64,000 bases of DNA from Aminobacter carboxidus (GTDB taxonomy: Bacteria; Pseudomonadota; Alphaproteobacteria; Rhizobiales; Rhizobiaceae), in contig NZ_JACZEP010000006.1 in NCBI RefSeq assembly GCF_014863355.1, forward strand, positions 62,001-126,000. Reading direction: 5' to 3'. Position numbers and translations under genes: made by a program. The first letter of the stretch is position 1. Every line of letters begins with the position of its first letter. The notes beneath the pieces were generated by a model. It was not told where the DNA came from. It did not search any database and was given only the letters and a program-made list of their open reading frames with translations. Positions 42,386-56,708 of this stretch are shown piece after piece.

Positions 42386-43027
42386 CTATTCCTGCGGCAT
42401 CTCGGCGGCGTTGTAGACGTGGCGGGCGGCAAGCAGGGCTGCGAGTTCGCTGTCGCCGGCGATCACCGCACGCAGGATGCCGGCATGCTCTTCCCAGTTC
42501 TGGCGGCCGCGGCGCTTGCTGATCGGCGCAAACAGCATCACGGTGCGGTCGCGCAGCGAGCGCACCATGTCCTGCAGCACGGAATTGGCGGCAACGGTCG
42601 CCAGCGCTTCATGGAATTCGGTGTTCTGGCGCGACAAAAGCACCGGGTCGTCAGTGTCGGCAAGCTTGGCGCCATCGTCGAGGATGCGCTGCAGGGCGGC
42701 GATCTGCTCGGGGTCGTGGCGCTTGGCCGCCAGCTTGGCGTTGAGCGCTTCGAGCGTGGCGCGGACCTCGACCAGCTCGCGCTTCTGGTCTTCGCTGAAC
42801 ACCGTGACCGAAGCGCCGCGGCGCGGCTCGATGGTGACGATGCCCTCGGCGGCAAGCTCACGCAGCGCCTCGCGCACCGGCATGCGCGACACGCCCATCT
42901 CCTCGGAGAGGCGGCCTTCGACCAGCCTTTCGCCGACACCGATTTCGCCGCTGACGATGCGCTCGCGCAAGGCGGCGGTGATCAGCTTGGTGAGCGGAGC
43001 GTGGATTTCCCCGAGTACGACGGTCAT
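42386..43027 (-). CDS. GntR family regulator (FadR/FCD type), probable controller of the 42-64 kb regulon
   Basis: The 213-residue protein has a GntR winged helix (LITAALRERIVSGEIGVGERLVEG, MGVSRMPVREALRELAAEGIV) and an FCD effector domain of helices with metal-binding His/Asp positions (EFHEALATV, EEHAGILRAVIAG, ARHVYNA). FCD regulators bind organic-acid ligands and are usually repressors. A near-copy of the palindrome found upstream of HDO-1 and HDO-2 lies 79 bp before its start, so it likely controls itself and those operons. It is the first gene downstream of the esterase gene on the minus strand. Confidence 0.85.
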   Translation of the reverse strand: MTVVLGEIHAPLTKLITAALRERIVSGEIGVGERLVEGRLSEEMGVSRMPVREALRELAAEGIVTIEPRRGASVTVFSEDQKRELVEVRATLEALNAKLAAKRHDPEQIAALQRILDDGAKLADTDDPVLLSRQNTEFHEALATVAANSVLQDMVRSLRDRTVMLFAPISKRRGRQNWEEHAGILRAVIAGDSELAALLAARHVYNAAEMPQE

Positions 43028-43105: not shown

Positions 43106-43122
43106 TTTGGAGTACAATATTC
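43106..43122. promoter_or_regulatory. GntR operator candidate before the gntR gene
   Basis: TTTGGAGTACAATATTC matches 14 of 17 positions of the HDO-1 operator read on the opposite strand (TTTGGTATACAGTATTC). It overlaps the end of the esterase gene and would give gntR its own promoter control. Confidence 0.5.
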
Positions 43123-44689
43123 AATCCACACCATCAATTATGCCTATCGCCGGCCACCAAGCGAGCCGGGCTGCGCCATGGAGCGGGCCAAACAGCATAC
43201 CGTCACGGCCAAGGGCCATCGCCTGCGAGGAGCCGGCTGGCAACTCCGGGTTGAAGTCTGGCCAATCGTGCGTTGCCGGCGCGCCATCGCGCACAAATGC
43301 CGCCCAGGCCGCCATCATGGCCTGGGAAAGGGCATCGGTGGCGTCATCCGCGCCGACCTTGGCGGCGAAATGGGGATGGCGATGGGTGCCGAAGACGAAG
43401 GGCACACAAGCGGCATGCGGCGTGCCGCCGGTCACGGCGAGCGGCCAGGCGAAATCGTAGAAGAAGACAGGCGAGCCGCGACGTGCATGGCGGGCCGCAT
43501 AGCGCCAGACCGGGGCGCGGAAGACGAGGTCTGAGTAGATGGCAAGCCAGATCGCATCGGAGCCGGCTTCGGGCATGGCGGCGCGATAGCCGGCGAGGAT
43601 CGCCGCGGGCGATGGCGCGGGGTCGAACGGATAATGCAGCGCGATCAGCCGCACCAGCGCCGCTTCGAATGGCTCGCCCGGCCCGGGTGGCGAAAGTGCG
43701 GAAAGCTTGACGCCATCGGGCAGAGCGAGGTCGTACCAGAATTTCGCTTCGTCGCGGGTGAAGCCGATCAGCAGCGGCACGTCGGCGAGCACGCCTTCAT
43801 GCGGCCAGGCATGGACGAGCGCGCCGTCGAGCGTCGGCGCCGTACGCGGCCGGGGAAACCGCCTGGCGAAATCGGCGTCGCGCAGCAGCGCGGCTTCGCG
43901 GCGGACGAGGTCGGTGCCGGCGAGATCGCGCAAGCCGGCGACTGTAGTGCCAAGGGACGTGGCGACCGCCTCGGTATATTCGCCAGCGTCGTGGAGGCCG
44001 ACGAACATCGGCGGTTGGAACAGCGGCGGGCTCTGGGCGATGACGGTGCGAAACAGGCCACGGTTACAGGGATTTTGGGCGATCAGCACGACGTTGGCGG
44101 CACCTGAAGATTGGCCCGCGATCGTCACTTTGTGCGGATCGCCGCCGAAGGCTGCGATGGTCTCCTGGACCCAGCGCAGGCCGGCGATCTTGTCCTGCAA
44201 ACCCCAGTTGGCGCAGAACCCAGTGTCCGGGTCGACGAGATCAGGATGTGCCAGACCGCCCAGTGGTCCGAGCCGGTAGTTCACCGTCACGACGACGATG
44301 CCGTGCTCGCAGGCGAGGCCAAATCCGTCGCAGGCGGCAGCGCCGCCATGACCGTTACGTGTCGCCCCGCCGTGGAACCAGACCAGGACGGGCGCATTGC
44401 GCGCATCGACTGGCGCCCAGACATTCAGCGTCAGGCAGTCCTCGTCCATGTTGATGATCGGATCGTTGAGCCAGGTCTGGCTGCCGGCGAGGTGCTGCGG
44501 TGCCGCCGGACCTATCCGGTCAGCCTGGAGTATGCCGGTCCAGTTCGGCGTAGGCCTCGGCGAACGCAGCCTGAAAGCACCGATCGGCGCTGCCGCATAG
44601 GGGACGCCGAGAAAATGGTCGACGCCGTCATGCCGTCGCCCGGCGAGGCGGCCGGCGGGCGTTTCAACCATAATTTCCGTGTTGCCCAT
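43121..44689 (-). CDS. Type-B carboxylesterase/lipase family protein
   Basis: The 522-residue alpha/beta hydrolase has FLGVPYAAAPIGAFRLR and MDEDCLTLNVWAP near the N-terminus, the oxyanion loop VLVWFHGGATRNGHG, nucleophile Ser in TIAGQSSGAANVV (usual GESAG is GQSSG here), the acid in GFTRDEAKFW and the His in TGGTPHAACVPF. No signal peptide is seen, so it should act in the cytoplasm on an ester or amide. It shares the minus-strand operon with the reductase and HDO-1 genes; the gap to the reductase is 22 bp. Confidence 0.88.
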   Translation of the reverse strand: MGNTEIMVETPAGRLAGRRHDGVDHFLGVPYAAAPIGAFRLRSPRPTPNWTGILQADRIGPAAPQHLAGSQTWLNDPIINMDEDCLTLNVWAPVDARNAPVLVWFHGGATRNGHGGAAACDGFGLACEHGIVVVTVNYRLGPLGGLAHPDLVDPDTGFCANWGLQDKIAGLRWVQETIAAFGGDPHKVTIAGQSSGAANVVLIAQNPCNRGLFRTVIAQSPPLFQPPMFVGLHDAGEYTEAVATSLGTTVAGLRDLAGTDLVRREAALLRDADFARRFPRPRTAPTLDGALVHAWPHEGVLADVPLLIGFTRDEAKFWYDLALPDGVKLSALSPPGPGEPFEAALVRLIALHYPFDPAPSPAAILAGYRAAMPEAGSDAIWLAIYSDLVFRAPVWRYAARHARRGSPVFFYDFAWPLAVTGGTPHAACVPFVFGTHRHPHFAAKVGADDATDALSQAMMAAWAAFVRDGAPATHDWPDFNPELPAGSSQAMALGRDGMLFGPLHGAARLAWWPAIGIIDGVD

Positions 44690-44711: not shown

Positions 44712-45725
44712 CTATTCGGCCGGCACGAGCGTGTGCTGGAAATTGAAGGCGTCGGCGTAGATGAAGCCGGGATTGGCGCCGTTTTCGACGAACAGTTTTT
44801 TGGCGCTCGAAATCATGTTGGGCGAACCGCACATGTAGATCGCATGCTCGGAGAAGTCGCGAATGTCTTCGCTGGCGACCTCCTGGACGTAGCCTTGCCG
44901 ACCGCTCCAGTTCGGGCTGGGCCGCGAGAGCACCGGCACATACTGGAAGTCGCACAACCGCTCGCCCCAGGACTGGATCTCGTCATGCAGATAGAGATCC
45001 TCCTCGCTGCGCATGCCCCAGTAGAGCGACACCGGCGGACAATCGGGATCATCCATCAGCGATTCCAGGATGCTTTTGATGGGTGCCAAGCCGGTGCCCG
45101 TCGCCACCATCACGATGGGCCGGAAGTCTTCCTTGCGGCAGCAGAACAGGCCGTGCGGCAGTTCTACGTCGAGCCTGTCGCCGGCGTTGAGCCGCAGCAA
45201 CTGGCCGCCGGTGAAGTGGCCATCGCGGACGCGGCGGATGTGCAAGTCGACGGTCTTGCCGTTGGGCACCGATGCCATGGAGAAGCTGCGCTTGTTGCCG
45301 TCGCCAAGCAGCAGGTTGAGATATTGCCCGGGACGGTAGACCAGCTCTTCGGCGCCAGGGATCGCAAGGGTCAGGTGGACGACATCGCGGCCGAGGTGGC
45401 GGACGGATTCCACGGTCGCGGTATACCGTTTCGGATCGGAGCACGGCTCCATCGGGCGTTCGGTCGAGATCAGCAGGTCGCTTTCGGGCCGCGCCTGGCA
45501 GGCCAGCGCGAAGCCCTCCTCCTCATCCTCCGGTGTCAGCGCCAGCGGATATTCGTCATAACGCACGCAGCCTTCCATCAGCCGCACGCGGCAGGTGCCG
45601 CAGCCACCCTCGGTGCAATCGTGCAGCAGTTGGATGCCCTGGCGGATCGCCGCCATCAGCACGGATTCTTCAGCGGCAACGGTAAACTGGTCCTCGGTTT
45701 CGAGGACGCGCACAACATGGTCCAT
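44712..45725 (-). CDS. 2Fe-2S/FAD/NAD(P)H oxidoreductase, electron-transfer component of an oxygenase
   Basis: The 337-residue protein has a plant-type ferredoxin domain at the N-terminus (Cys37, Cys42, Cys45 and Cys76), then an FAD domain (YRPGQYLNLLLG, KRSFSMASVP) and an NAD(P) domain (VMVATGTGLAPIKSILE, YWGMRSEEDLY). This is the class IB reductase order found in multicomponent oxygenases. Here the only oxygenase candidates nearby are the HDO proteins, so it may supply their electrons, perhaps via the two ferredoxins. ATG 45725 has GGAG upstream. Confidence 0.88.
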   Translation of the reverse strand: MDHVVRVLETEDQFTVAAEESVLMAAIRQGIQLLHDCTEGGCGTCRVRLMEGCVRYDEYPLALTPEDEEEGFALACQARPESDLLISTERPMEPCSDPKRYTATVESVRHLGRDVVHLTLAIPGAEELVYRPGQYLNLLLGDGNKRSFSMASVPNGKTVDLHIRRVRDGHFTGGQLLRLNAGDRLDVELPHGLFCCRKEDFRPIVMVATGTGLAPIKSILESLMDDPDCPPVSLYWGMRSEEDLYLHDEIQSWGERLCDFQYVPVLSRPSPNWSGRQGYVQEVASEDIRDFSEHAIYMCGSPNMISSAKKLFVENGANPGFIYADAFNFQHTLVPAE

Positions 45726-45766
45726 CCATGTCTCCACTAAGGTTGGATGCGGCGCCGCCGCTTCGG

Positions 45767-46246
45767 TCACTTCTTGATGTCAGCCTGGACCAGGACCTTG
45801 TGTCCCATGGGCTCCAGCATGGCCTGCAAGGCGGCGAGCGCTGCCACGCCGCAGGCGATGTCCTGCTCGCCATTGCCGCCGCTCAAGCCGACCCCGCCGA
45901 TGACGTCGCCGTCGACGACGACGGGAAAGCCGCCGACGAAGGCGGCGAAGCGGCCCTCGAAGCTGAGCTGGATGCCGAAGGCTTCGTTGCCGGGCAGAGC
46001 CGGGCCATTTGGCGGGGTGGTGAACAGATGCGTCGAGCGCTTGTGCCCGGCGGCGGTGAAGGCCTTGTTCCAGGCGATCTGAGGACCAGTGACACGGGCG
46101 CCGTTCATGCGCTCCAGCGCGATCGGATAGCCGCCGTCATCGGCGATGCAGACGGTTTCAGGAACATTGAGTTCCAGCGCCTTGGCAACCGCCGCGGCGA
46201 CCATCACGCGAGCTTCTTCAAGTTCGAGTTTAAGGACCTGTTTCAC
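45767..46246 (-). CDS. GlcG/HbpS family (haem-binding DUF336) protein
   Basis: The 159-residue protein has the GlcG/PduO-C-like fold: LELEEARVMVAAAVAKALELN, ETVCIADDGGYPIALERM, NKAFTAAGHKRSTHLF and GFPVVVDGDVIGGVGLSGGNGEQD. Relatives include HbpS, which binds haem, and subunits encoded next to glycolate oxidase or corrinoid enzymes; the function is not settled. It may handle a cofactor or quench by-products of the HDO reaction. I chose GTG 46246, since the domain starts there. It lies 87 bp after HDO-1 and 41 bp before the reductase. Confidence 0.82.
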   Translation of the reverse strand: MKQVLKLELEEARVMVAAAVAKALELNVPETVCIADDGGYPIALERMNGARVTGPQIAWNKAFTAAGHKRSTHLFTTPPNGPALPGNEAFGIQLSFEGRFAAFVGGFPVVVDGDVIGGVGLSGGNGEQDIACGVAALAALQAMLEPMGHKVLVQADIKK

Positions 46247-46333
46247 GTCGTTATCGTCCGGCAATGGTTGGCAATTTGAAGGGACGCACGAGGCAGGCAA
46301 GCCACCCCGCGCGCTCCCCACTATGGCGAAGGA

Positions 46334-47062
46334 TCAGGCGGCGAGGAGTTCCTCAAGCGGCAGTTCGGCCGCGACATAGTCGTTGTAGAGCGCGGTGGTG
46401 TAGAGCAGCCGCATCTGGGCGCCGACCTCACAGATCTTGAGGCAGCGCTGCTGCATCTCGACGGTGCGGGCATGTTCCAGGACGATCTGGTAGCCGCGTT
46501 CGCCATGGATCTCGTCGGAGACGATGTGCAGGTCGAAGAACTCGACCTCCTCGTCGGTGAAGCCATATTTGTCGCGCAGCGTCGGCGTCTGCTTGCGGTA
46601 GATCGACGGCACCTGGGATTCGAGCCCGACGACGAGGCCGGCAACGGCAACGATCGGGTCTTCGCGCATGGCCACCGCATAGCACCAGCTCTGCAGCGCG
46701 CGTGTCGTCGGCGACATGTTGTCGGGGTCGCGCATCCTGTCGCCCGTCGTGCCGCAGGCTTCGCCGAAACGGACGAGCAGGTCGGTGTGGCGGTCGCCGC
46801 CGATCTCTTCCTCATACATGTTGGCCAGCAGGAAATCCTTGGCCTCGGTATAGCCCTCCGGCATGCGGGCATAGATGTAGCCGAGGTAATCCGCGAACGG
46901 CCCGACATAGTGGTAGTGGTTCTCGGCCCAGCGGGCGAGATGGTCGCGGCTCAGCTTGCCGCTCGCCCAGCCAACGCTGAACGGCGACTTGTTGGCGCTC
47001 TTGCCCTTGATGGCGTTTTCCAGCGCCGTGCGGAACTCGTCCGGATTCATTGCAACGGTCAT
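46334..47062 (-). CDS. Haem-oxygenase-like diiron oxidase/oxygenase, paralogue 1 (HDO-1)
   Basis: The 242-residue all-helical protein belongs to the TenA/PqqC-like haem-oxygenase-like superfamily. Residues Glu85, His92, Glu148, His179, Asp183 and His186 reproduce the E-x6-H ... E ... H-x3-D-x2-H ligand spacing of diiron HDO enzymes (CADD, SznF, UndA relatives), so a dinuclear iron site is expected. HDO enzymes oxidise amines, hydroxylate nitrogen or cleave C-C bonds with oxygen; the substrate here is unknown. The duplicate at 54309 differs at about 15 of the first 231 residues. AAGGGAG precedes ATG 47062. A 35-bp palindromic operator lies 28 bp upstream. Confidence 0.85.
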   Translation of the reverse strand: MTVAMNPDEFRTALENAIKGKSANKSPFSVGWASGKLSRDHLARWAENHYHYVGPFADYLGYIYARMPEGYTEAKDFLLANMYEEEIGGDRHTDLLVRFGEACGTTGDRMRDPDNMSPTTRALQSWCYAVAMREDPIVAVAGLVVGLESQVPSIYRKQTPTLRDKYGFTDEEVEFFDLHIVSDEIHGERGYQIVLEHARTVEMQQRCLKICEVGAQMRLLYTTALYNDYVAAELPLEELLAA

Positions 47063-47089
47063 TCACTGCTCCCTTGAGAAATCGTCTGA

Positions 47090-47124
47090 AAGTCATTTTG
47101 GAATACTGTATACCAAAATGACTT
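47090..47124. promoter_or_regulatory. GntR operator before HDO-1 (35-bp palindrome)
   Basis: Arms AAGTCATTTTGG (47090-47101) and CCAAAATGACTT (47113-47124) are perfectly complementary. The centre AATACTGTATA is itself palindromic except for its outer pair. It is the most symmetrical of a family of sites sharing ATAC(T/A)GTAT and should bind the FadR-type regulator. Confidence 0.75.
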
Positions 47125-47284
47125 GAGCGCAAGGGCCGGTAAAGGATACCTCCCGATAGCGAGCGCTGCCGGACTGGCCATGCCGCGGAAGTTCGGCTAG
47201 CTTTCTTTCATCCGAAACATTCCGGTGAACCTTTTTGCGGCCAACAACGACCAAGCAGACAGGAGCCCGGCGGTAGCACCGGCC

Positions 47285-47857
47285 ATGAACATCGCATCAG
47301 ACCCCATGTCCGATCGTGATCTCGTGAGCCGCGTCGCGAACGGCGACCGCGCCGCTTTGCGGCTCCTGTTCACGCGGCACCACGCACGGGTCTACCGTTT
47401 CGTGGCGCGCCAGACGGGGTCGGAAGCGATGGCGGATGACGTAGCCAATGAGGTGTTTCTCGAATTGTGGCGCCAGGCGCCGAAATTCGAAGGCCGCTCG
47501 GAAGTCTCGACCTGGCTGCTTGGCATAGCGCGCTTCAAGGCGCTGTCGTCGCTGCGCAAGCGCAAGGAAGAGTGGCTCGACGACGACGATGCGGCAGCCG
47601 TGCCCGACGACAACGACACGCCCGAAGTGGCGACGATGAAGACCGACAAGGGTGCTGCCCTGCGTCGCTTCGTCGATGCGCTCGCCGAGGAGCATCGCAC
47701 GGTCATCGACCTCGCCTACTACCATGGCAAGTCGGTCACCGAGATCGGCGAGGTGCTCGACATTCCGGTCGCCACCGTGAAGACGCGGATGTTTTATGCC
47801 CGCAAGAAACTCGGCGAAGCCTTGAAGGCCGCCGGATACGACAGGGGCTGGCCATGA
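47285..47857 (+). CDS. ECF-type RNA polymerase sigma factor
   Basis: The 190-residue protein has sigma region 2 (HHARVYRFVARQTGSEAMADDVANEVFLELWR) and region 4 (RTVIDLAYYHGKSVTEIGEVLDIPVATVKTRM), with no sigma-3 domain, the hallmark of ECF factors. It is the first gene of a three-gene operon with an anti-sigma factor and a subtilase. I preferred ATG 47285 as giving a typical length; GTG 47225 and ATG 47306 are alternatives and none has a strong ribosome site. Its target promoters are unknown. Confidence 0.88.
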   Translation: MNIASDPMSDRDLVSRVANGDRAALRLLFTRHHARVYRFVARQTGSEAMADDVANEVFLELWRQAPKFEGRSEVSTWLLGIARFKALSSLRKRKEEWLDDDDAAAVPDDNDTPEVATMKTDKGAALRRFVDALAEEHRTVIDLAYYHGKSVTEIGEVLDIPVATVKTRMFYARKKLGEALKAAGYDRGWP

Positions 47858-48516
47858 GCGCTGCCGAAAAGATGTCGCGCCGCGACGAGATCGAGACGCT
47901 GCTGCCGTTCTATCTGAACGGCACGCTCGAAGGGTCCGAGCTGGCAACCGTCGAAGACTGGCTCGCCAGCGATCCGGCAGCACCTGCTGCCCTTGAAGCC
48001 GCCGAGGCCGAGTTCTCCGGCACGATGGCCTCCAACGAGGCAATCCGTCCGCCCGCCGATGCGCTGAGCCGCTTTTCCAAGCTGCTCGACGCCGAAGCCG
48101 GGCCAGTGCGCGAACCGCAGGCTCAATCGCTGCTGTCGCGGGTCTGGGAACGGTTCATGGGCCTGCCGGTGGGCGTCGCCTGGGGAGCGGCGGCGGCATT
48201 GCTGGCACTGGTGATGGTGCAGTCGGTGCTCGAGCCCGGCGGCCGTGGCAACGACGTCCAGGTCGCTGGAACCGGCGAGGATCAGAGCAAGCTGCCTTTC
48301 GCGCTGGTCACCTTCAAGCCGGATGCCAGGATGGCCGACATTGCCAGCCTGCTCGGCGACAATGGCGCTTCGATCATCGACGGCCCGACGGCGAGCGGCG
48401 TCTTCCGCATCGCCATCCCGGCCGAAACCGTCGCCGATTACGACCGCATCGTCGGCGCCATCGCGGCAGCGTCCTTTGCCGACACTGTGACGGCAGGAAG
48501 GAAACCCCAGGGATGA
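47854..48516 (+). CDS. Membrane-bound anti-sigma factor with a periplasmic domain
   Basis: The 220-residue protein overlaps the sigma stop (ATGA), which supports its role as the cognate anti-sigma factor. Residues 1 to about 100 resemble an anti-sigma domain (DEIETLLPFYLNGTLEGSEL...DWLASDP) without the zinc HxxxCxxC. One membrane helix follows (GVAWGAAAALLALVMVQSVL). The exported end, ALVTFKPDARMADIASLLGD and ASIIDGPTASGVFRIAIP, looks like a subtilase propeptide (I9-like) module. It may tie the sigma factor to the protease encoded next. Confidence 0.75.
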   Translation: MSAAEKMSRRDEIETLLPFYLNGTLEGSELATVEDWLASDPAAPAALEAAEAEFSGTMASNEAIRPPADALSRFSKLLDAEAGPVREPQAQSLLSRVWERFMGLPVGVAWGAAAALLALVMVQSVLEPGGRGNDVQVAGTGEDQSKLPFALVTFKPDARMADIASLLGDNGASIIDGPTASGVFRIAIPAETVADYDRIVGAIAAASFADTVTAGRKPQG

Positions 48517-50024
48517 CGACCTCAGGGCGATTTGCACAGCTTGTGCTGGCGGCGACATTGTTTGCCGCCACACCTGTTTTCGCCCAGACCAACGATCCCA
48601 GCCTGACGCCGCAGCAGCTTGACTGCCTCAACCAGACGACTACGGCCGGCAACGCCAATTGCCTGCAGCCGGGCGGCCCGGCACCTGGCGCCGCTCCGGG
48701 AGGCGCGTCGGGCGGCAGCGGCCTGCCCGCGCCCGTCAGCCTGCCCGAACTGCTCGTCGACCTGTTCCCTAATCCCGGCGACTTTCCCGGCGTCGCTTCG
48801 GGTGGCCAGCCGGCAACGCCGGTGCCGACGCCAAACCCACTGCGCGATCCCGCCGGCGGCAATGCCGCCCCCTCCGGCACGGGCGCACAGGCCGGGGCAC
48901 CGCCACCACAACCGCCTGCAGCCGATATCGCACCGCCAGGCAGCGCCATCACCGCGCCGCCGCGTGCCATCTCGGGCGCCTTCGTTCCCGACGAGGTACT
49001 GGTGACAGTCGATGGTGGTGCTGCCGACGCGCAGGCCCTTGCCGCCGCCTATGGCCTCGAAATCCGCTCCCAGCGGCAGTCGGTACTGCTCGGCACCAGC
49101 CTCGTACGCTTCGGCATTCCCGACGGCCGTCCGGTCGGCGTGGTGCTGGCGCAACTGGCCGGCGACGGCCGCACCAGCGAGCGCGAGCCCAACCACATCT
49201 ACGAGCTGCAGCAGGCTGCGGCAGCATCCAGCTTCGCCTTCCAGCGCATCTCGCTCGACGAGGCGGCAGCGAATGGCGAAAACGTCAATGTCGCGGTCAT
49301 CGATACGGCCATCGACGAAACCCATCCGGCGCTCAAGGGCGTGATCGTTGAGAGCTTCGACGCCATGCCAGGCGTTGCCGTCACCGCCCGCGACCACGCC
49401 ACCTCGGTCGCCGGGCTGATATCAGGCACCGGCGCGTTCAAGGGCATGGCGCCGGGTTCGAAGATCTTCCACGCCCGCGCCTTCGAAGGCGGCAAGTCGA
49501 ACATGGAGATCATCCTCAACGCGCTCGACTGGGCCGCCGAGCAGAACGTCCAGATCGTCAATATGAGTTTCGTCGGGCCAAAGAATGCGCTGCTGGAGCA
49601 GGCCAGCCGCGGAGCCCGTGCGCGCGGCATGATCCTCGTCGCTGCCGCCGGCAACAACGGCCCCGGCGCGCCCTATGGCTATCCGGCCGCCTACAAGGGC
49701 GTTATCGCGGTCACCGCCACCGACGCCAAGGACGCGATCATGAAGCAGGCCAATCGCGGCCCCTATGTCTACATCTCGGCGCCCGGCGTCGACCTGATGG
49801 CCCCTGTTGGTGGCGGCACCGACCTCGTCACCGGCACGTCGTTTGCCGCGGCCGTCGTCAGCGGTGCGATCGCCAACCTGCTGCACGCCGAACCGGAGCG
49901 CAGTGCCGATTCGATCGAAAAGGCGCTTGCCGCCACCGCCACCGACCTCGGCGACAAGGGTCGCGACACCGACTTCGGCTTCGGGCTGATCAACACCAAG
50001 GCGGCGGAAGCAGCCAAGGAGTAG
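48513..50024 (+). CDS. Exported S8 (subtilisin-like) serine protease
   Basis: The 503-residue protein has a signal peptide (LVLAATLFAATPVFAQ), a Pro/Gly/Ala-rich stretch (about residues 45-145), a propeptide-like domain (about 150-235), then the S8 catalytic domain. Catalytic Asp264 lies in AVIDTAIDETHP, His295 in RDHATSVAGLI, oxyanion Asn in AAAGNNGPG and Ser443 in GTSFAAAVVSG. The His motif is HAT instead of the usual HGT. Its ATG overlaps the anti-sigma stop, so the three genes are one unit. It should act in the periplasm or outside the cell. Confidence 0.88.
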   Translation: MTTSGRFAQLVLAATLFAATPVFAQTNDPSLTPQQLDCLNQTTTAGNANCLQPGGPAPGAAPGGASGGSGLPAPVSLPELLVDLFPNPGDFPGVASGGQPATPVPTPNPLRDPAGGNAAPSGTGAQAGAPPPQPPAADIAPPGSAITAPPRAISGAFVPDEVLVTVDGGAADAQALAAAYGLEIRSQRQSVLLGTSLVRFGIPDGRPVGVVLAQLAGDGRTSEREPNHIYELQQAAAASSFAFQRISLDEAAANGENVNVAVIDTAIDETHPALKGVIVESFDAMPGVAVTARDHATSVAGLISGTGAFKGMAPGSKIFHARAFEGGKSNMEIILNALDWAAEQNVQIVNMSFVGPKNALLEQASRGARARGMILVAAAGNNGPGAPYGYPAAYKGVIAVTATDAKDAIMKQANRGPYVYISAPGVDLMAPVGGGTDLVTGTSFAAAVVSGAIANLLHAEPERSADSIEKALAATATDLGDKGRDTDFGFGLINTKAAEAAKE

Positions 50025-50078
50025 GCGCAGCGCCAGAACCTGCTGCCCCCTTTCAGTCACCAGCGGCTTGCCCGGCGG

Positions 50079-50993
50079 TCAAACACCTGCAATTCGCCGA
50101 TAGGCCAATCCCGCCAGCGCAATATCCTGCAAGCCGACGCCAACCGACTTGTAGATGGTGATCTCGTCATCGGCGCTGCGGCCGCTCGCCTTGCCGGCGA
50201 GGATTTCGCCGAGCTCGACGATCTTTTCCGCCGGCAGTGCTTCAGGGTCGGCGAGCACGAGGTCGCCGGCTTCGCGCAGGCTCTGGTCGCGCCACTCGAC
50301 GGCGACGAGCGAAGCACGCGCCATGGCACGGTCATCGAGTTCGCGGGTGTTGGGCAGGCTTGAGCCGACCGCAGCAATGAAGCAGCCCGGCTTGAGCAAC
50401 TCGCCCGAAAACAGCGCGGACGGCGAGCGCGAAGCGGTGACGACGATATCGGCTTCTGTAGCGGCTTCCGTCGCCGTGGCCATGCGCGTGGGGATGCCGC
50501 AGGTGGCTTCAAGCTCGGCGGCCAGCGCCGGATCTGGCGAACGGCTGACCAGCAGCACGCGTTTGAGCGGAAAGGCTTCGGCCAGTTGCATCGCATGCGC
50601 CCGCCCGAGCGGGCCGGAGCCGAAGACGGCGAGCGTCGAGGAACTCGGCCGGGCAAGGTGCTTGGCCGCGATGACCGAGCAGCCGGCGGTCCTGAGACTT
50701 GTAATCGCTCCCGCATCAAAGGTGGCGAGCGCGCGGCCGTCGACCGAAGAAAACAGCAGGATGACGAACGAGAACTGGCCCTTGATCGTGCTGTAGACCT
50801 TGGCGCCCAAAACCTGCTGGCCGGGGATGACCGCGCCCAGCGTCGACAGCTTGACCCCGCCGGCCTCGCTGCGAATGCGCGCCTGCATCGCTGCCTCTTG
50901 CCTGCCGAAAGACAGGAAGGCATCAGCCAGCACGGCACGAGCGTCGGCGACGCTGACGGCGGCTTCGACCATGGCATCGGTGATATGGATCAT
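50079..50993 (-). CDS. Ornithine cyclodeaminase / mu-crystallin family protein
   Basis: The 304-residue enzyme has the family order: MVEAAVSVADARAVLADAF, KLSTLGAVIPGQQVLGAKVYS, LATFDAGAITSLRTA (the DAxxIT-R substrate region), the Rossmann NAD site LAVFGSGPLGRAHAMQL and the end TIYKSVGVGLQDIALA. Members cyclise, reduce or oxidise amino acids and cyclic imines. It ends the HDO-2 operon and overlaps the TauE stop (ATGA). Whether it works on an imine formed by the HDO enzymes is only inference. Confidence 0.88.
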   Translation of the reverse strand: MIHITDAMVEAAVSVADARAVLADAFLSFGRQEAAMQARIRSEAGGVKLSTLGAVIPGQQVLGAKVYSTIKGQFSFVILLFSSVDGRALATFDAGAITSLRTAGCSVIAAKHLARPSSSTLAVFGSGPLGRAHAMQLAEAFPLKRVLLVSRSPDPALAAELEATCGIPTRMATATEAATEADIVVTASRSPSALFSGELLKPGCFIAAVGSSLPNTRELDDRAMARASLVAVEWRDQSLREAGDLVLADPEALPAEKIVELGEILAGKASGRSADDEITIYKSVGVGLQDIALAGLAYRRIAGV

Positions 50994-51745
50994 GGCACCA
51001 GCGTCCGGGCGAGAATGCCGAGCGCGCCGAGGCCCGACATGGTGAGCAGAAGGACGCGCACGCCGTGTGGCGAGAAGTGCCTGACAAATCGTCCGGAGAC
51101 AAAGAAGCCGCCCAGCATCAGCGGGAAGAGCAGGATGCCGAGCCACAGCTGCGGCAAGGAGAAGCGGTCGACATAAGCGAGCATCAGCAGTGACAGGATG
51201 GCGCCGGCAAAGAAGACGCAGCTGACCGTCGCGCGCATCTGGCGTGGCGGCACATATTGCATGACGATAGCGAAGGGCGGCGCGCCCGATGAGGTGATGG
51301 TGCCCATCAGCCCGGAGGCCAGGCCGGCCAGCGCCATGTTGGGATGCGATGCCTCGACCTTCCAGCCGGCGAAGCTGAGGCCGACACCGACGAGGATCAA
51401 CAGCGCAAAGACGATGGCAAAGGCATTGGTCGGCAAGGCCGCGAGCGTCGCCCCGGCCAGCAGCGTGCCGCCGGCGCGGCCGGCCATCAACGTGGTGACC
51501 GAGGCCCAGTCGACGGCGTCGAAATCGCGCTGCAAGCCCAGAAGGGCGAGCCCGGCGCCAAGCACCAGCAGCGGCCCCGGCGCCATCTCGGGAAAGAACA
51601 ACACCGCCAGCGGCGCCGAAACCATGGCGAAGCCGAGCCCGCCTATGCCCTGGAGCAGTGCAGCGACAAACACCATCGCGCCCATGCCGACCAGATGACC
51701 CGGCACGAAGGTGCCGGGCATCGACGACAACAGCGTCTCAAGCAT
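50990..51745 (-). CDS. TauE/SafE family sulfite/anion exporter
   Basis: The 251-residue integral membrane protein has seven to eight hydrophobic segments with the TauE/SafE repeats (GMGAMVFVAALLQGIGGLGFA and ASGLMGTITSSGAPPF). The family exports sulfite, sulfonates or organic acids. It lies in the HDO-2 operon, overlapping the OCD-family start (ATGA), two bases after the aldehyde dehydrogenase stop, so it may carry a product of the same pathway, perhaps a sulfur-containing one. Confidence 0.82.
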   Translation of the reverse strand: MLETLLSSMPGTFVPGHLVGMGAMVFVAALLQGIGGLGFAMVSAPLAVLFFPEMAPGPLLVLGAGLALLGLQRDFDAVDWASVTTLMAGRAGGTLLAGATLAALPTNAFAIVFALLILVGVGLSFAGWKVEASHPNMALAGLASGLMGTITSSGAPPFAIVMQYVPPRQMRATVSCVFFAGAILSLLMLAYVDRFSLPQLWLGILLFPLMLGGFFVSGRFVRHFSPHGVRVLLLTMSGLGALGILARTLVP

Positions 51746-51746
51746 G

Positions 51747-53201
51747 TCATGCCCCAAGATAGATGCTCTTGATGCGGCTGTAGAAATCCATGACGTTGGC
51801 GCCGCCCTGCTCCTTCGCCGCCTGGTTGCTCGAATGCTTGAAGCCGCCAAAGGGCGCGTTGAGCGACACACCCGTGGTCGGGCTGTTGACCTTGACGATG
51901 CCGTGCTGGGTTTCTCGGGCGAAGCGCAAAACCGACGCCAGGTCACCGGTGACGAGCGAAACGGCAAGGCCGTATTCGGTGTCGTCGGCGAGCCTTATCG
52001 CCTCGTCGAGGCTGTCGATCGGGCGGATGGCGACCACCGGCCCGAAGATTTCCTCGCGCCACAGGCGGCTGTTTTCGGGCAGGTCGGAAACAACCGCCGG
52101 GCGGACGAAACAGCCATGCGCCAGCGCCGGATCGGTCTCAGGCAGCGCATCGCCGCCGACGACCCGGCCGCCTTCGTCGCGGGCGATGCCGACATAGGAG
52201 CGCACCTTGTCATATTGCGCGCGCGTGGCAAGCGGCCCCATCTGCACGCCCTCGGCAGTGCCGGGGCCGACCTTGATGGCGGCGGCGGATTTCTCCAGCC
52301 GCGCCACCAATTCGGCATAAAGCGGGCGAGCCACCAGCACGCGGCTGGTGCCGGTGCAGGCTTGGCCGGTGAGGCCGAAGGCGCCGCGCTCGATGGTGGC
52401 AACCGCCTTGTCGATGCTGGCATCGGCGAGCACGACGGTGGCGTTCTTGCCGCCCATTTCGAGCTGGACGCGGGTGTCGGTGGAAAGCGACGCCGCGATC
52501 TGCTTGCCGACGGCATAGGAGCCGGTGAAGGTCAGCGCGTCGACGCCGGCCTGGGCAGTGATCGCCTGGCCGACCTTGGCGCCCTTGCCCTGGACGAGCG
52601 CGACAAGCTTCGGCGGCAGGCCGGCATCAAGCAGCACCTCGACCAGGCGTTGGCCCATCAAGGGCGTGATTTCGGAGGGCTTGAAGACGACGCCGTTGCC
52701 GGCGGCAAGCGCGGGCCCGAGCTTTCGCGCGGCCATCGACAGCGGGAAATTCCACGGCGTGATGACGGCGACAACGCCGACCGGCTGGCGCAGCGACAGC
52801 ACCAGCTGGGCGGCCTCGCTCGGATACGTCTCGCCGTTGAGGCGTAGTGCTTCGCCGGCATAAAGGCGGAAGTTGGCAGCGATGCGTCTGGCTTCGTTGC
52901 GCGCTTCGTTGAGCGTCTTGCCTTCCTCGCGGGTCAGCTCCGCCGCGATCGCGTCGGCGCGCTGCGACATCAGGTCGGCGGCACGAAACAGCACGTCGGC
53001 GCGCACCTCGGGCGACTGCGCCGCCCAGGCCGGCCAGGCGGACGCAACCGACGCCACTGCCGCGGCGACATCGGCGGCATCGGAGTCGGGGAACAGCCCG
53101 ATCAGGTCGCGCTCGTCGGCGGGATTGCGGTCCTCGAAGGTGGCGCCGCCGCGCGCCGGCTGCCATTCGCCGGCGATGTAGTTGAGATGTCGCTCTGTCA
53201 T
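51747..53201 (-). CDS. NAD(P)-dependent aldehyde dehydrogenase (semialdehyde type)
   Basis: The 484-residue soluble enzyme has VVAVITPWNFPLSMAARKLG, the catalytic Glu in QLEMGGKNATVVL, the catalytic Cys in GLTGQACTGTSRVLVARP and EEIFGPVVAIRPID. The GQACTG motif and PGTAEGVQMGP block are like alpha-ketoglutarate semialdehyde and succinate semialdehyde dehydrogenases. It should oxidise an aldehyde made by upstream steps. ATG 53201 has GGA upstream. It follows ferredoxin 1 by 31 bp in the HDO-2 operon. Confidence 0.9.
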   Translation of the reverse strand: MTERHLNYIAGEWQPARGGATFEDRNPADERDLIGLFPDSDAADVAAAVASVASAWPAWAAQSPEVRADVLFRAADLMSQRADAIAAELTREEGKTLNEARNEARRIAANFRLYAGEALRLNGETYPSEAAQLVLSLRQPVGVVAVITPWNFPLSMAARKLGPALAAGNGVVFKPSEITPLMGQRLVEVLLDAGLPPKLVALVQGKGAKVGQAITAQAGVDALTFTGSYAVGKQIAASLSTDTRVQLEMGGKNATVVLADASIDKAVATIERGAFGLTGQACTGTSRVLVARPLYAELVARLEKSAAAIKVGPGTAEGVQMGPLATRAQYDKVRSYVGIARDEGGRVVGGDALPETDPALAHGCFVRPAVVSDLPENSRLWREEIFGPVVAIRPIDSLDEAIRLADDTEYGLAVSLVTGDLASVLRFARETQHGIVKVNSPTTGVSLNAPFGGFKHSSNQAAKEQGGANVMDFYSRIKSIYLGA

Positions 53202-53232
53202 CGGTCCGTTCTGCTTGTTGGAGGCCCCCGCC

Positions 53233-53526
53233 TCAGCGTGCCTTGGGAACCCACGAGACGCTGATGTCACCGAGCACGAAGGTCTGGCAGGCCATGCGGA
53301 AGCCGGCGGCAAGATCGTCAGGCGTCAGGTGGTTGCGTTCCTTGGGCTTGACCGCATCGGTGTTTTCGATCCCGGTCTCTATCCGGCACTTGCAGGTGCC
53401 GCACAGCCCACCGCCACATTTGAACGGGATGCCGCCCTTCTCCCGCAGCGACACGCGCAGCAGATTGCTGTTGTCGGGCGCGGTCGCCTGCTTGCCATCA
53501 TTGGTGATGAAGGTGATCGTGATCAT
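53233..53526 (-). CDS. 2Fe-2S ferredoxin 1 (plant-type)
   Basis: The 97-residue protein has a beta-grasp ferredoxin fold with the cluster motif CGGGLCGTC (Cys37, Cys42, Cys45) and the fourth ligand Cys80 in FRMACQTFVLGD. It has no adrenodoxin-like or reductase domain, so it shuttles single electrons between a reductase and an oxygenase. It lies in the same operon as HDO-2, between the unknown 99-residue protein and the aldehyde dehydrogenase. Confidence 0.92.
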   Translation of the reverse strand: MITITFITNDGKQATAPDNSNLLRVSLREKGGIPFKCGGGLCGTCKCRIETGIENTDAVKPKERNHLTPDDLAAGFRMACQTFVLGDISVSWVPKAR

Positions 53527-53580
53527 CGGCGCATTCGGGGCGTGGGAGCTGCTGGAAGGATTGGCGGCCAGACGAGGCCG

Positions 53581-53880
53581 TCAGACGCGCTTGAGCTGGA
53601 TGTCCATGCTGCCGTAGGTGGTCAGCGTCTTGAGCTCGTGACGGGCGTCCTCGACCGAATCGAACTTCTCAAACAGCTTGCAAGGCACGTTGTTTTCGAT
53701 CTGCGGCGGCTCGTCCTCGACGATGCGGATGCGGGTCTGCGTCTGGTCGGTGAGCTTCGCGATGGTGAAGCTCGCGCGCTTGCGGCCGTAGAAGATGTAG
53801 TCGTAGGTCTCGACCGGCTGCACGCCGGGGCTCATCTCGGTCCGGAACTCGCCCGGCTTGGTCGTCAGAACCACATACAT
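53581..53880 (-). CDS. Unknown 99-residue protein between the two ferredoxin genes
   Basis: I do not recognise this protein. It is soluble, with no signal peptide, and reads MYVVLTTKPGEFRTEM..., VQPVETYDYIFYGRKRAS, ASFTIAKLTDQTQTRIRIVED, then a helical part FEKFDSVEDARHELKTLTTYG and MDIQLKRV. Alternating strand residues suggest a mixed beta/alpha fold. GAGGTG lies upstream of ATG 53880. Its position between two ferredoxin genes in an HDO operon makes it a possible regulatory or coupling subunit of the oxygenase, like the small effector proteins of diiron monooxygenases, though nothing in its sequence proves this. Confidence 0.75.
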   Translation of the reverse strand: MYVVLTTKPGEFRTEMSPGVQPVETYDYIFYGRKRASFTIAKLTDQTQTRIRIVEDEPPQIENNVPCKLFEKFDSVEDARHELKTLTTYGSMDIQLKRV

Positions 53881-53990
53881 TTGTCCACCTCATGCTGATT
53901 GCTGTTCGCAGCGCCGGGCCGCGCATGAGCGCCGCCGGCCGCCATGTTCCGATTTGCCGCGCCGGAGCGGCGCGGCGGGACGCCTGGCCG

Positions 53991-54299
53991 CTAGGCCTGC
54001 TCCGTCACCTTTTCCTGGCGAAGCTCGATGTCGTTCTTGATCCACAGCTGGCAGACGAGGCGGAAGCCCTCATCGATCTTGTCACCGAGCTGCTTCTTTT
54101 CTTTCCAGTTGGGCGGCGGCAGATGCTCCGCGCCGGCCAGGATGCGGCTGGCGCAGGTGCCGCATTTTCCCATGCCGCATTTGTAGGCCAGGTGCGGATA
54201 GGGAAACTGCTTGATGCCGGCCCGGACGACGAGGTTGGTGTCCTCCTTGACCTCGCCGCTATAGGCTTCGCCCTTGCTGTGGATCACGACTGTCGGCAT
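53991..54299 (-). CDS. 2Fe-2S ferredoxin 2 (plant-type)
   Basis: The 102-residue ferredoxin carries CGMGKCGTC (Cys41, Cys46, Cys49) and Cys83 in FRLVCQLWIKND. It differs strongly from ferredoxin 1 outside the cluster loop, with a basic C-terminus and the PPPNWKEKKQLGD segment. Nine bases separate it from the HDO-2 stop, so it is probably the direct partner of HDO-2. About 110 bp without a gene lie between it and the 99-residue protein. Confidence 0.9.
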   Translation of the reverse strand: MPTVVIHSKGEAYSGEVKEDTNLVVRAGIKQFPYPHLAYKCGMGKCGTCASRILAGAEHLPPPNWKEKKQLGDKIDEGFRLVCQLWIKNDIELRQEKVTEQA

Positions 54300-54308
54300 G
54301 CGCGTAAC

Positions 54309-55067
54309 TCAGACGCCGCCGATGCCGGCGAGCTCCGGCTCCATCGGCGCCACCCGCCCAAGCTTCACGTCGCCGGCGACATAGTCGTTGTAGAGTGCCG
54401 TGGTGTAGAGCAGGCGCATCTGCGCTCCGACCTCGCAGATCTTGAGGCAGCGCTGCTGCATCTCGACGGTGCGCGCATGTTCCAGCACGATCTGGTAGCC
54501 GCGCTCGCCATGGATTTCGTCGGAAACGATATGCAGGTCGAAGAACTCGACCTCCTCGTCGGTGAAGCCGTAGCTGTCGCGCAATGTCGGCGTCTGCTTG
54601 CGGTAGATCGACGGCACCTGGGATTCGAGCCCGACGACGAGGCCGGCGACGGCGACGATCGGGTCCTCGCGCATCGCCACCGCATAGCACCAGCTCTGCA
54701 GGCCGCGCGTTGTCGGCGACATGTTCTCCTGATCGGTCATGCGCGCTCTGGACGTGCCGCATGCCTCGCCGAAGCGGATCAGCAGGTCGGTGTGGCGGTC
54801 GCCGCCAATCTCTTCCTCATACATGTTGGCGAGCAGGAAATCCTTGGCCTCGACATACTGCTCGGGCATGCGGGCGTAGATGTAGCCGAGGTAATCGGCG
54901 AACGGCCCGACATAATGATAGTGGTTCTCGGCCCAGCGCGAGAGATGGTCGCGGCTGAGCTTGCCGCTCGCCCAGGCCAGGCTGAAGGGCGACTTGTTGG
55001 CGCTCTTGCCCTTGATGGCATCTTCCAGCGCGGTGCGAAATTCGTCCGGGTTCATCGCAACAGTCAT
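54309..55067 (-). CDS. Haem-oxygenase-like diiron oxidase/oxygenase, paralogue 2 (HDO-2)
   Basis: The 252-residue protein is nearly the same as HDO-1: all six predicted iron ligands (Glu85, His92, Glu148, His179, Asp183, His186) and their surroundings are kept, and differences cluster at residues 105-115 and in the last 20 residues, where this copy ends GDVKLGRVAPMEPELAGIGGV. AGGGGA lies before ATG 55067. It begins the operon running to 50079 and has its own operator at the same distance from the start as HDO-1. Confidence 0.85.
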   Translation of the reverse strand: MTVAMNPDEFRTALEDAIKGKSANKSPFSLAWASGKLSRDHLSRWAENHYHYVGPFADYLGYIYARMPEQYVEAKDFLLANMYEEEIGGDRHTDLLIRFGEACGTSRARMTDQENMSPTTRGLQSWCYAVAMREDPIVAVAGLVVGLESQVPSIYRKQTPTLRDSYGFTDEEVEFFDLHIVSDEIHGERGYQIVLEHARTVEMQQRCLKICEVGAQMRLLYTTALYNDYVAGDVKLGRVAPMEPELAGIGGV

Positions 55068-55235: not shown

Positions 55236-56708
55236 ATGGACAGCTCCAAAACAGATGCCGGCATCGGCGTCCGCAGCACGACCGCAATGGTGGCGACCGG
55301 CCATCCGCTGGCGGCACGCGCGGCCCGCGACATGCTGGCGGCGGGCGGTTCCGCCATCGACGCGGCGATTACGGCCGACGCCATTCTCGGCGTCGTCGAG
55401 CCAATGGCGACGGGGATCGGCGGCGACCTGCTGGCGATGCTGGTCGAGCCGGATGGCCACGCCATCAGCTACAACGGCACCGGGCGCTCGCCGGCCGCAC
55501 TCTCTACCGAGGTGATCGGGAAGCTGCCGCACCAGCGCATCCCCGAACGGCACGCCTTGTCGGTCACCGTGCCCGGCGCTGTGCGCGGCTGGTTCGACCT
55601 GCACGCCCGCTACGGCCGCCTGCCGTTTCAGCAATTGCTGGCTCCGGCCATCGCCCTCGCCACTGACGGCTTTGCCGTCCTGCCTATAACCGCCCGTGAA
55701 TGGGCGGTGTTCGAGCCGGTGATCAAGCGCGACCCGGCCTGCGCCAAGCTCTACCGCGCCGGCAAAACGCCATTGCAGGGCGAGCGCTTTGCCAATCCCG
55801 AGCTTGCGGCGATGCTGCGGGCCATCGCAGCCGACGGGCCCGACGCCTTCTATCACGGCGCCCCGGCCCAGCAGGCGGCAGCGGCGAACCAGGCCCAGGG
55901 TGGCGTGCTTTCGGCGCAGGACTTTGCGGCCCATCGCGGCGATTTCGTGCTGCCGATCGAACGAAAATTCCGCGACTTGACCGTGCTCGAATGCCCGCCC
56001 AACACGCATGGTGTCGCCGTGCTCGATGCACTGGAGGAACTCGATGCGCTGGCGCTCGATCGCGACGATCCGGCGACCACGCTGGTCATGGTCGAAGCCG
56101 TCGGCCGCGCCATGGCGCAAGCCAAAAGGACCGTCGCCGATCCCGCCGGCAACACGGTCTGCACCGTGGTCGTCGACAGTGACGGCCTCGCCGTGACGCT
56201 GATGAGCAGCATCTTCAAGCGCTTCGGCTCCGGTATCGCCGTGCCCGGCTGCGGCTTCGTGCTGCAGAACCGTGGCAGCGGATTTTCCGAGCCCGGCCAC
56301 GTCAATGGACCGGCACCAGCCAAGCGGCCCTATCACACTGTCGTGCCGGCTGCGGCGCTGAAGGACGGCCGCTTCCATGCCGGATTCGGTGTCGTCGGCG
56401 GCGCGATGCAGCCGCAAGGCCATGTCCAGCTTCTGGTCCGCCTCGCCGCCTGGGGCGAAAGACTGCAGGCGGCCATCGACGCGCCACGCTGGCGCCTGGA
56501 GGGCGACAACGCGCTGGCGATCGAGCCCGGCACGCCGGATGCAATCGTCAGGACGTTGCGTGATGCCGGCTACACCGATCCGGAAGGTGCTGGCGAACTG
56601 GCCGGCCGCAGCGACTTCGGCGGCGCGCAATTCGTTGTGCGCGACGACGACGGCAGCCTGCTCGGCGGCTCGGACAGGCGCAAGGACGGCCTGGCCCTAG
56701 GCGCCTGA
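55236..56708 (+). CDS. Gamma-glutamyltransferase family protein, HpxW-like
   Basis: The 490-residue Ntn-hydrolase has VATGHPLAARAARDMLAAGG and the substrate region GIGGDLLAML, then the autoprocessing site before Thr307 in AGNTVCTVVVDSDGLAV, followed by SSIFKRFGSGIAVPGCGF and LQNRGSGFS. This GNTV/FGSG pattern is the HpxW branch (oxamate amidohydrolase), not the classical GTTH type. No signal peptide is visible, so it should act in the cytoplasm on an amide. It is followed by an SDR gene in the same direction. Confidence 0.85.
   Translation: MDSSKTDAGIGVRSTTAMVATGHPLAARAARDMLAAGGSAIDAAITADAILGVVEPMATGIGGDLLAMLVEPDGHAISYNGTGRSPAALSTEVIGKLPHQRIPERHALSVTVPGAVRGWFDLHARYGRLPFQQLLAPAIALATDGFAVLPITAREWAVFEPVIKRDPACAKLYRAGKTPLQGERFANPELAAMLRAIAADGPDAFYHGAPAQQAAAANQAQGGVLSAQDFAAHRGDFVLPIERKFRDLTVLECPPNTHGVAVLDALEELDALALDRDDPATTLVMVEAVGRAMAQAKRTVADPAGNTVCTVVVDSDGLAVTLMSSIFKRFGSGIAVPGCGFVLQNRGSGFSEPGHVNGPAPAKRPYHTVVPAAALKDGRFHAGFGVVGGAMQPQGHVQLLVRLAAWGERLQAAIDAPRWRLEGDNALAIEPGTPDAIVRTLRDAGYTDPEGAGELAGRSDFGGAQFVVRDDDGSLLGGSDRRKDGLALGA

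What the first reader, a model, noticed from the sequence alone, without database searches (positions are those of the whole stretch)
44712..55067. Two HDO oxygenases with two ferredoxins, a reductase and an unknown small protein: a possible new multicomponent diiron system
Seen: two haem-oxygenase-like diiron proteins with the full E-x6-H, E, H-x3-D-x2-H ligand set lie in operons that also encode a 2Fe-2S/FAD/NAD reductase, two 2Fe-2S ferredoxins and a 99-residue protein I cannot place. Known: HDO enzymes studied so far (CADD, SznF, UndA, BesC) are mostly not encoded with a dedicated reductase and two ferredoxins. Inference: the cluster is a catabolic oxygenase with its own electron chain, feeding an aldehyde dehydrogenase and an OCD-family enzyme. 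The substrate is unknown; a hydroxyproline-like cyclic amine is one option (OCD, DAO and semialdehyde dehydrogenase occur there), but no proline racemase or dehydratase is present.
Basis: partly seen in the sequence, partly recalled or inferred. Interest (0 to 1): 0.85.

Follow-up and report, generated by a model that had tools for sequence, protein, structure and literature searches.

The report
Diiron oxygenase with own ferredoxins
Some soil and plant-associated bacteria carry a conserved set of genes in which an oxygen-using iron enzyme travels with two small electron carriers, a small protein of unknown kind and an aldehyde-linked protein; it looks like an uncharacterised multi-part oxygenase for breaking down a nitrogen compound that is not yet known.

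Summary
Both HDO genes carry the full ligand set (E85-x6-H92, E148, H179-x3-D183-x2-H186), invariant in 97 of 97 loci scored, and the predicted fold matches CADD. The set is real: FdA-P99-FdB lie in that order on one strand in 93 of 97 loci; of the other four, three are cut by a contig end and one is a second HDO copy whose contig carries the trio elsewhere. HDO and P99 occupy the same genomes in two samples, apart from one distant HDO. HDOs at 42-44% identity keep DUF336 and GntR but pair with a Rieske protein (10 of 10 loci); at 30-35% no partner was found (0 of 7). P99 matches no known family or fold searched. Best reading: a multicomponent HDO oxygenase fed through 2Fe-2S carriers, in a catabolic pathway releasing an aldehyde from an amine or amide. 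Chemistry and substrate are inferred. One HDO with a dedicated reductase is published (MboAB), so this is a new variant.

The parts
54309..55067 (-). HDO-2, haem-oxygenase-like diiron protein (252 aa), first gene of the larger operon
53991..54299 (-). FdA, 2Fe-2S ferredoxin (102 aa), four invariant Cys
   Evidence: Fer2; Cys 94 of 94
53581..53880 (-). P99, 99-residue protein without known family; predicted beta-rich fold, pLDDT 91
53233..53526 (-). FdB, second 2Fe-2S ferredoxin (97 aa), four cluster Cys plus a fifth invariant Cys47
51747..53201 (-). aldehyde dehydrogenase; best NCBIfam models are 2,5-dioxovalerate and alpha-ketoglutaric semialdehyde dehydrogenase, below cutoff
50990..51745 (-). 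TauE/SafE-like membrane protein, probable transporter; its relative in L075 hits PF01925, the near copy in L008 does not at E<=0.01
50079..50993 (-). OCD-family (ornithine cyclodeaminase / imine reductase) protein
46334..47062 (-). HDO-1, second HDO copy (242 aa), first gene of the second operon
45767..46246 (-). DUF336 (HbpS/GlcG/EfgA-like) protein; GTG start set by alignment to 159-aa homologues; constant partner of the HDO
44712..45770 (-). RED, Fer2-FAD-NAD reductase of the BenC/MmoC layout; four cluster Cys invariant in 55 of 55
43121..44689 (-). carboxylesterase-like hydrolase (named by eye), probable operon member; L080 has a 51-52% relative in its HDO locus
42386..43027 (-). GntR/FCD regulator, conserved beside the system
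55236..56708 (+). GGT-like hydrolase, divergent from HDO-2; recurs beside HDO in several lineages; below the TIGR00066 cutoff

Best explanation
A multicomponent HDO oxygenase for catabolism. SHOWN by sequence: an HDO with a complete 3-His/3-carboxylate site, two free 2Fe-2S ferredoxins, P99 and a DUF336 protein occur together as one set, with a GntR regulator, an ALDH and an NAD(P)H:FAD:2Fe-2S reductase in most loci. INFERRED: electrons run NAD(P)H -> reductase -> FdA/FdB -> diiron site, one electron per carrier, giving diiron(II), which binds O2 once substrate is bound. P99, which has no conserved metal ligands, would be a docking or effector protein, a counterpart in role (not in descent) of the cofactor-less effector of bacterial multicomponent monooxygenases. 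The substrate would be an amine or amino acid, in several lineages freed from an amide by a hydrolase. Oxidation next to nitrogen or C-C scission would release an aldehyde, bound or sensed by DUF336 and oxidised by the ALDH; the OCD or aspartate dehydrogenase would reduce an imine product.
For: Trio in fixed order in 93 of 97 loci. Same genomes for HDO and P99: 3 and 3 of 297; 4 close HDO and 4 P99 of 398. All 13 further loci from the family of G588 carry FdA, P99, FdB, DUF336, ALDH and RED, 12 of 13 GntR. Metal and cluster ligands invariant: HDO 97 of 97, FdA 94 of 94, FdB 93 of 93, RED 55 of 55. No Rieske or P450 competitor for the ferredoxins by motif within 7 kb in 98 records; 11 Rieske-pattern hits were judged by eye to be reading-frame noise. 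A sister clade has a Rieske protein in place of the trio but keeps DUF336 and GntR (10 of 10 loci read of 17 matching genomes), as expected if the trio's job is electron delivery. HDO fold: CADD, TM 0.92 on the target, rmsd 2.0. MboA needs its partner MboB for multiple turnovers (PMC13185094, passages). DUF336 includes the formaldehyde sensor EfgA (PMC8153426, passages); the positions of its K57, S114 and D121 are conserved here in 90 of 90.
Against: No biochemistry and no substrate. The reductase is within reach in only 52 of 82 loci, so in many genomes the electron source is unlinked or of another type. Two ferredoxins on top of a reductase that has its own 2Fe-2S domain is more than a chain needs; why two is unexplained. 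K, S and D are largely conserved in DUF336 homologues at large, so they do not prove aldehyde binding. The hydrolases are not universal (GGT-like 12, amidase 15, alpha/beta hydrolase 9, isochorismatase-like 5 of 82), so 'amide' is a weak inference. No formaldehyde-oxidising gene was noticed beside the system, but this was not searched for. P99 as effector is a guess from its company. The seven HDO loci at 30-35% identity carry none of the partners.
Confidence: 0.67

Rival explanations
1. The ferredoxins and P99 maintain or rebuild the labile diiron cofactor (as YfaE does for ribonucleotide reductase) rather than feed each turnover; the reductase alone, or cellular reductant, drives catalysis.
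For: HDO cofactors are labile (recalled). The AF2 model dips around residues 81-90, which include E85 (mean pLDDT 68). The reductase has its own Fer2 domain. RED and both ferredoxins give YfaE-model hits, all below cutoff.
Against: The sister clade has a Rieske protein in the same place, which fits electron supply better. MboB is needed for multiple turnovers of MboA (PMC13185094).
Confidence: 0.17
2. The ferredoxins serve another enzyme of the pathway and the HDO needs no dedicated donor.
For: Other HDOs work with chemical reductants or mediators (PMC13185094). The trio is sometimes several kb from HDO or on the other strand: in 65 of 93 loci the HDO copy scored lies directly upstream on the same strand and in 5 it is a divergent neighbour (for loci with two HDO copies only one was scored).
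Against: No other ferredoxin-dependent oxygenase by motif nearby. Close HDO and P99 match one to one by genome.
Confidence: 0.08
3. An organosulfur pathway: the oxygenase releases sulfite from a sulfonate, leaving an aldehyde.
For: TauE/SafE-like protein in 42 of 82 loci, a sulfite-dehydrogenase-like gene in 15 of 82, an SsuA-like binding protein in 5 of 82.
Against: Many neighbour families were looked at, so a few such links are expected.
Confidence: 0.08
4. A cofactor-making or self-modifying protein of the CADD/PqqC kind, not a turnover oxygenase.
For: CADD and PqqC are the nearest solved sequences and folds.
Against: Scores are far below the family cutoffs (95.5 against 200; 52.3 against 240). 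The CADD positions Y27 and K152 (roles recalled) are S29 and Q158 here, in 97 of 97. The setting looks catabolic.
Confidence: 0.04

Closest known systems
MboA/MboB, mangotoxin biosynthesis (PMC13185094; abstract and passages read)
   Same: HDO with 3-His/3-carboxylate site and a co-encoded NAD(P)H-flavin-2Fe2S reductase that it needs
   Different: Biosynthetic; one redox partner; no free ferredoxins, P99 or DUF336 in the passages read. Sequences were not compared here.
CADD (4-aminobenzoate synthase) and PqqC
   Same: Nearest solved fold (CADD TM 0.92 on target) and, for CADD, the ligand spacing
   Different: CADD's Y27 and K152 positions are changed; family cutoffs not reached
Bacterial multicomponent monooxygenases (sMMO, toluene-4-monooxygenase)
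   Same: Part list: diiron enzyme, Fer2-FAD-NAD reductase, ferredoxin (in toluene-4-monooxygenase), small cofactor-less protein (recalled)
   Different: Ferritin-like hydroxylase there, haem-oxygenase-like here; P99 has no MmoB/DmpM Pfam hit
AibH1H2/AibG and SfbO, dinuclear oxygenases found through Rieske neighbours (PMC10811679; passages read)
   Same: A dinuclear oxygenase next to a small 2Fe-2S protein proposed as its donor
   Different: PF04909 proteins, another fold
EfgA, formaldehyde sensor (PMC8153426; passages read)
   Same: DUF336 family; K, S, D positions conserved
   Different: EfgA arrests growth in response to formaldehyde and is found almost only in methylotrophs; here the protein is tied to an HDO

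Membership tests
Haem-oxygenase-like diiron oxidases/oxygenases (HDO) | PF14518 / haem-oxygenase fold | tested here: met
   125 and 123 bits, cutoff 28.9; Foldseek 65 PDB matches at E<=0.001, among the listed ones CADD, PqqC, UndA, HrmI and FlcD
Haem-oxygenase-like diiron oxidases/oxygenases (HDO) | 3 His + 3 Glu/Asp ligands | tested here: met
   E85, H92, E148, H179, D183, H186 in 97 of 97
Haem-oxygenase-like diiron oxidases/oxygenases (HDO) | binds two irons and activates O2 | not testable with these tools
   needs purified protein
CADD-type 4-aminobenzoate synthase | sacrificial Tyr (Y27) and Lys (K152), roles recalled | tested here: not met
   aligned residues are S29 and Q158, 97 of 97; TIGR04305 95.5 and 89.8 against cutoff 200
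PqqC | TIGR02111 cutoff | tested here: not met
   52.3 and 43.7 bits against 240
Bacterial multicomponent monooxygenases | ferritin-like hydroxylase and MmoB/DmpM effector (recalled) | tested here: not met
   HDO has a haem-oxygenase fold; no such Pfam hit among the 14 families listed for the 45 P99 members
Bacterial multicomponent monooxygenases | Fer2-FAD-NAD reductase | tested here: met
   MmoC and BenC models hit below cutoff
DUF336 / HbpS-like | PF03928 | tested here: met
   113.5 bits, cutoff 25
EfgA formaldehyde sensors | K57, S114, D121 equivalents | tested here: inconclusive
HDO with dedicated redox partner (MboAB kind) | partner required for turnover | not testable with these tools
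   only gene linkage shown

The most novel reading that the evidence does not exclude
The first catabolic, true multicomponent HDO oxygenase: haem-oxygenase-fold diiron enzyme, two ferredoxins, reductase and a new kind of cofactor-free effector (P99), assembled independently of the ferritin-fold multicomponent monooxygenases, with DUF336 handling the aldehyde it releases.
Probability: 0.42. Interest if true: 0.86.

Novelty: new variant of a known kind. Interest (0 to 1): 0.7.

Why it matters
By a 2026 paper (PMC13185094, passages), HDOs appear to specialise in biosynthesis, and only one HDO with a dedicated redox partner had been characterised. This set gives a defined, widespread list of partners to reconstitute, would move HDO chemistry into catabolism, and offers a family (P99) and a recurring HDO-DUF336 link whose roles can be tested directly.

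Tried and rejected
Ten paper searches, eight of them aimed at this cluster or at HDO redox partners (69 was about EfgA, 74 about NahX). No listed title or abstract start deals with this cluster, but only listings were seen apart from the papers cited; one search listed 5 of 5,751 hits, and the eight papers that use the annotation name 'iron-containing redox enzyme family' were not opened. Only the open library was searched. P99: Pfam (45 members), NCBIfam and PADLOC (window copy), PDB by sequence and by profile, and Foldseek gave nothing usable. The main transporter (CL5, 58 of 82 loci) has no Pfam or NCBIfam hit at E<=0.01 and no PDB hit better than E 0.58. Hydroxyproline: not supported; the OCD and ALDH score below the curated cutoffs of every model listed (best 25 shown for ALDH). 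Formaldehyde as the product was considered from EfgA; the ALDH resembles semialdehyde dehydrogenases, so a larger aldehyde is as likely. Sulfonate: kept as a weak rival.

Limits of the counts. first gave 66 usable loci of 84, but its script took the second HDO copy as reference in loci with two copies and cut at 60 bits; one search recounted with all HDO copies, 50 bits and 9.5 kb: 82 of 97 loci have 6 kb on both sides (15 dropped), and those numbers are used here. One search kept the 80 best of 472 relatives, so 392 were not read. L006 and L011 are the same Kaistia locus, and many loci come from one genus (Achromobacter, Bradyrhizobium), so counts are not independent. Results against: L012 has no trio; L009 and L029 have no DUF336 in range; L008, L009, L010, L014, L029, L042, L047, L053 and L157 have no GntR in range. 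Of the 7 distant loci, L139 and L140 are short. One search read 10 of the 17 matching genomes. The alpha/beta identity figures rest on 12 and 14 loci that I picked. In that call HDO distances correlated with those of each partner (Mantel r 0.32 to 0.72; 0 of 500 permutations as high, except 7 of 500 for the reductase), but shared species history alone can do this, so it is not used as evidence.
Full report
WHAT IS THERE. The window lies on contig C28 of a 6.29 Mb genome. Its nearest named relative at this locus is Aminobacter anthyllidis (HDO 99% identical). Two minus-strand operons carry the system: HDO-2, FdA, P99, FdB, ALDH, a TauE/SafE-like membrane protein and an OCD protein (55067 down to 50079), and HDO-1, DUF336, reductase, carboxylesterase-like protein and GntR regulator (47062 down to 42386). 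Between them sits an unrelated plus-strand block, by eye an ECF-type sigma factor, its partner and a subtilisin-like protease. A GGT-like gene diverges from HDO-2. Operon membership is read from strand and spacing; transcription was not tested.

THE HDO. Both copies are PF14518. The nearest solved sequences are CADD 4-aminobenzoate synthases, then PqqC. An AF2 model from 29 sequences (pLDDT 87.7) matches CADD with TM 0.92 on the target and rmsd about 2.0 over 217-222 columns, and also PqqC, UndA, HrmI and FlcD. E85, H92, E148, H179, D183 and H186 are invariant in 97 of 97 loci, matching the 3-His/3-carboxylate set described for HDOs (PMC13185094, passages). Residues aligned with CADD's Y27 and K152 are S29 and Q158 in 97 of 97, so it is not a CADD-type enzyme; the roles of those two residues are recalled. 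The HDO is the slowest part of the set: mean identity between 12 alpha and 14 beta loci that I picked is 87.4%, against 76.3% for DUF336, 71.5% FdB, 66.6% FdA, 59.6% ALDH, 51.4% reductase and 50.1% P99 (partners missing in some loci).

THE SET IS REAL. A scan of one genome for each of 84,980 species with the HDO gave 472 relatives, of which 77 loci were kept. FdA-P99-FdB lie in that order on one strand in 93 of 97; the other four are L012 and three loci cut by a contig end (L015, L058, L062; lengths). Of the 82 loci with 6 kb on both sides: FdA 81, P99 81, FdB 81, DUF336 80, GntR 73, ALDH family 70, CL5 transporter 58, reductase 52, TauE-like 42, OCD 34. The one without the trio is L012, the second HDO copy of Aminobacter sp. 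HY435; its contig carries the trio at the other copy (L009). By genome, HDO and P99 agree: 3 and 3 of 297 in the order; 4 close HDO and 4 P99 of 398 in the phylum, plus one distant HDO without P99. In a family sample 15 of 120 genomes have the HDO; the 13 loci not seen before all carry FdA, P99, FdB, DUF336, ALDH and reductase, and 12 of 13 GntR (L157 ends close by). In the window's genus 7 of 10 genomes have it, each with two HDO matches. Kaistia too has two copies, 227 of 227 residues identical over the stretch compared.

WHERE THE COUPLING STOPS. The distant HDO (G418, 42-44% identical) keeps DUF336 (57%) and GntR (55%) but has a Rieske protein instead of the trio. In its genus the same Rieske, HDO, DUF336, GntR layout was present in 10 of 10 loci read, of 17 matching genomes. 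HDOs at 30-35% identity in seven other alphaproteobacterial loci have none of FdA, P99, FdB, DUF336 or the reductase (two of these loci are short). So DUF336 appears to be the older partner and the 2Fe-2S donor the exchangeable one, which is what one expects if the trio's task is electron delivery. This is inference from two layouts.

P99. 45 members share 52% mean column identity. AF2 gives a confident small beta-rich fold with one helix near the C-terminus (pLDDT 91.1). Foldseek finds nothing at E<=0.001 in the PDB (best 0.14, TM about 0.3). No Cys or His of the window copy is conserved; R13, E15, Y28, N63 and K68 are above 90%. It is thus unlikely to bind a metal. A docking or effector role is a guess.

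MECHANISM. The reductase has the BenC/MmoC layout and its cluster Cys are invariant in 55 of 55. With FdA and FdB the set has three 2Fe-2S centres and one diiron site. No Rieske or P450 was found by motif within 7 kb in 98 records, so HDO is the only evident electron acceptor. DUF336 belongs with EfgA, a formaldehyde sensor (PMC8153426, passages); the three residues named for formaldehyde binding are conserved in 90 of 90, though the paper says they are largely conserved in DUF336 homologues. The ALDH is closest to semialdehyde dehydrogenase models without reaching a cutoff. In L050 an aspartate dehydrogenase (380 bits, cutoff 253) follows FdB, and no OCD was found in that locus, which hints that an imine or keto acid is reduced. 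Hydrolases differ by lineage: among 82 loci, amidase family 15, GGT-like 12 (one at 25% identity), alpha/beta hydrolase 9, isochorismatase-like 5. Together this points to an amine or amide substrate and an aldehyde product, at moderate to low confidence.

PRIOR ART. MboA/MboB is an HDO with a dedicated NAD(P)H-flavin-2Fe2S reductase; its authors write that it may be the first characterised HDO-redox partner pair and that HDOs appear to specialise in biosynthetic pathways (PMC13185094, abstract and passages). SfbO and AibH1H2 show the same logic on another fold (PMC10811679, passages). No title or abstract start listed by the ten paper searches deals with this cluster (most papers were seen as listings only). 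A 2025 review of haem-oxygenase-like metalloenzymes was not held, so it could not be checked.

VERDICT. It is a new variant of a known enzyme class, with an unknown small protein and an unknown substrate, and ready for reconstitution. Confidence in the best explanation was lowered by 0.01 after the recount because the reductase is linked in 52 of 82 loci and GntR in 12, not 13, of 13.

Noticed in passing
L096 (9829-10560) and L105, L158-L166: A sister HDO clade with a divergent orphan Rieske protein, DUF336 and GntR; the Rieske protein matches only the N-terminal part of Rieske oxygenase models. The HDO of L096 has an insertion between the aligned Glu and His ligands.
   Followed up: partly
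   Followed up: no
L075 13567-15099 and relatives: A 510-aa membrane-type protein (CL5) beside the HDO system in 58 of 82 loci without any Pfam, NCBIfam or PDB family found: probably an unclassified transporter.
   Followed up: partly
   Followed up: partly
L036 2573-3670; L021 5223-5894; also L045, L060, L062: NMT1/SsuA-like binding protein and a RutB/biuret-hydrolase-like isochorismatase recur beside the HDO: four Variovorax loci and L045, L060, L062 (scores below cutoffs).
   Followed up: partly
L006 9226-9954 and 18123-18860: Kaistia has two HDO copies with identical protein over 227 residues but 12 differences in 681 bases, and diverged upstream DNA (174 of 259 aligned bases): recent duplication or gene conversion.
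   Followed up: partly
window 47225-50024 (+): Sigma factor, putative anti-sigma and subtilisin-like protease genes lie between the two operons (named by eye); part of the block recurs in other loci such as L008.
   Followed up: no
window 53236-53526: FdB has a fifth Cys (C47) next to the cluster Cys, invariant in 93 of 93 loci.
   Followed up: no
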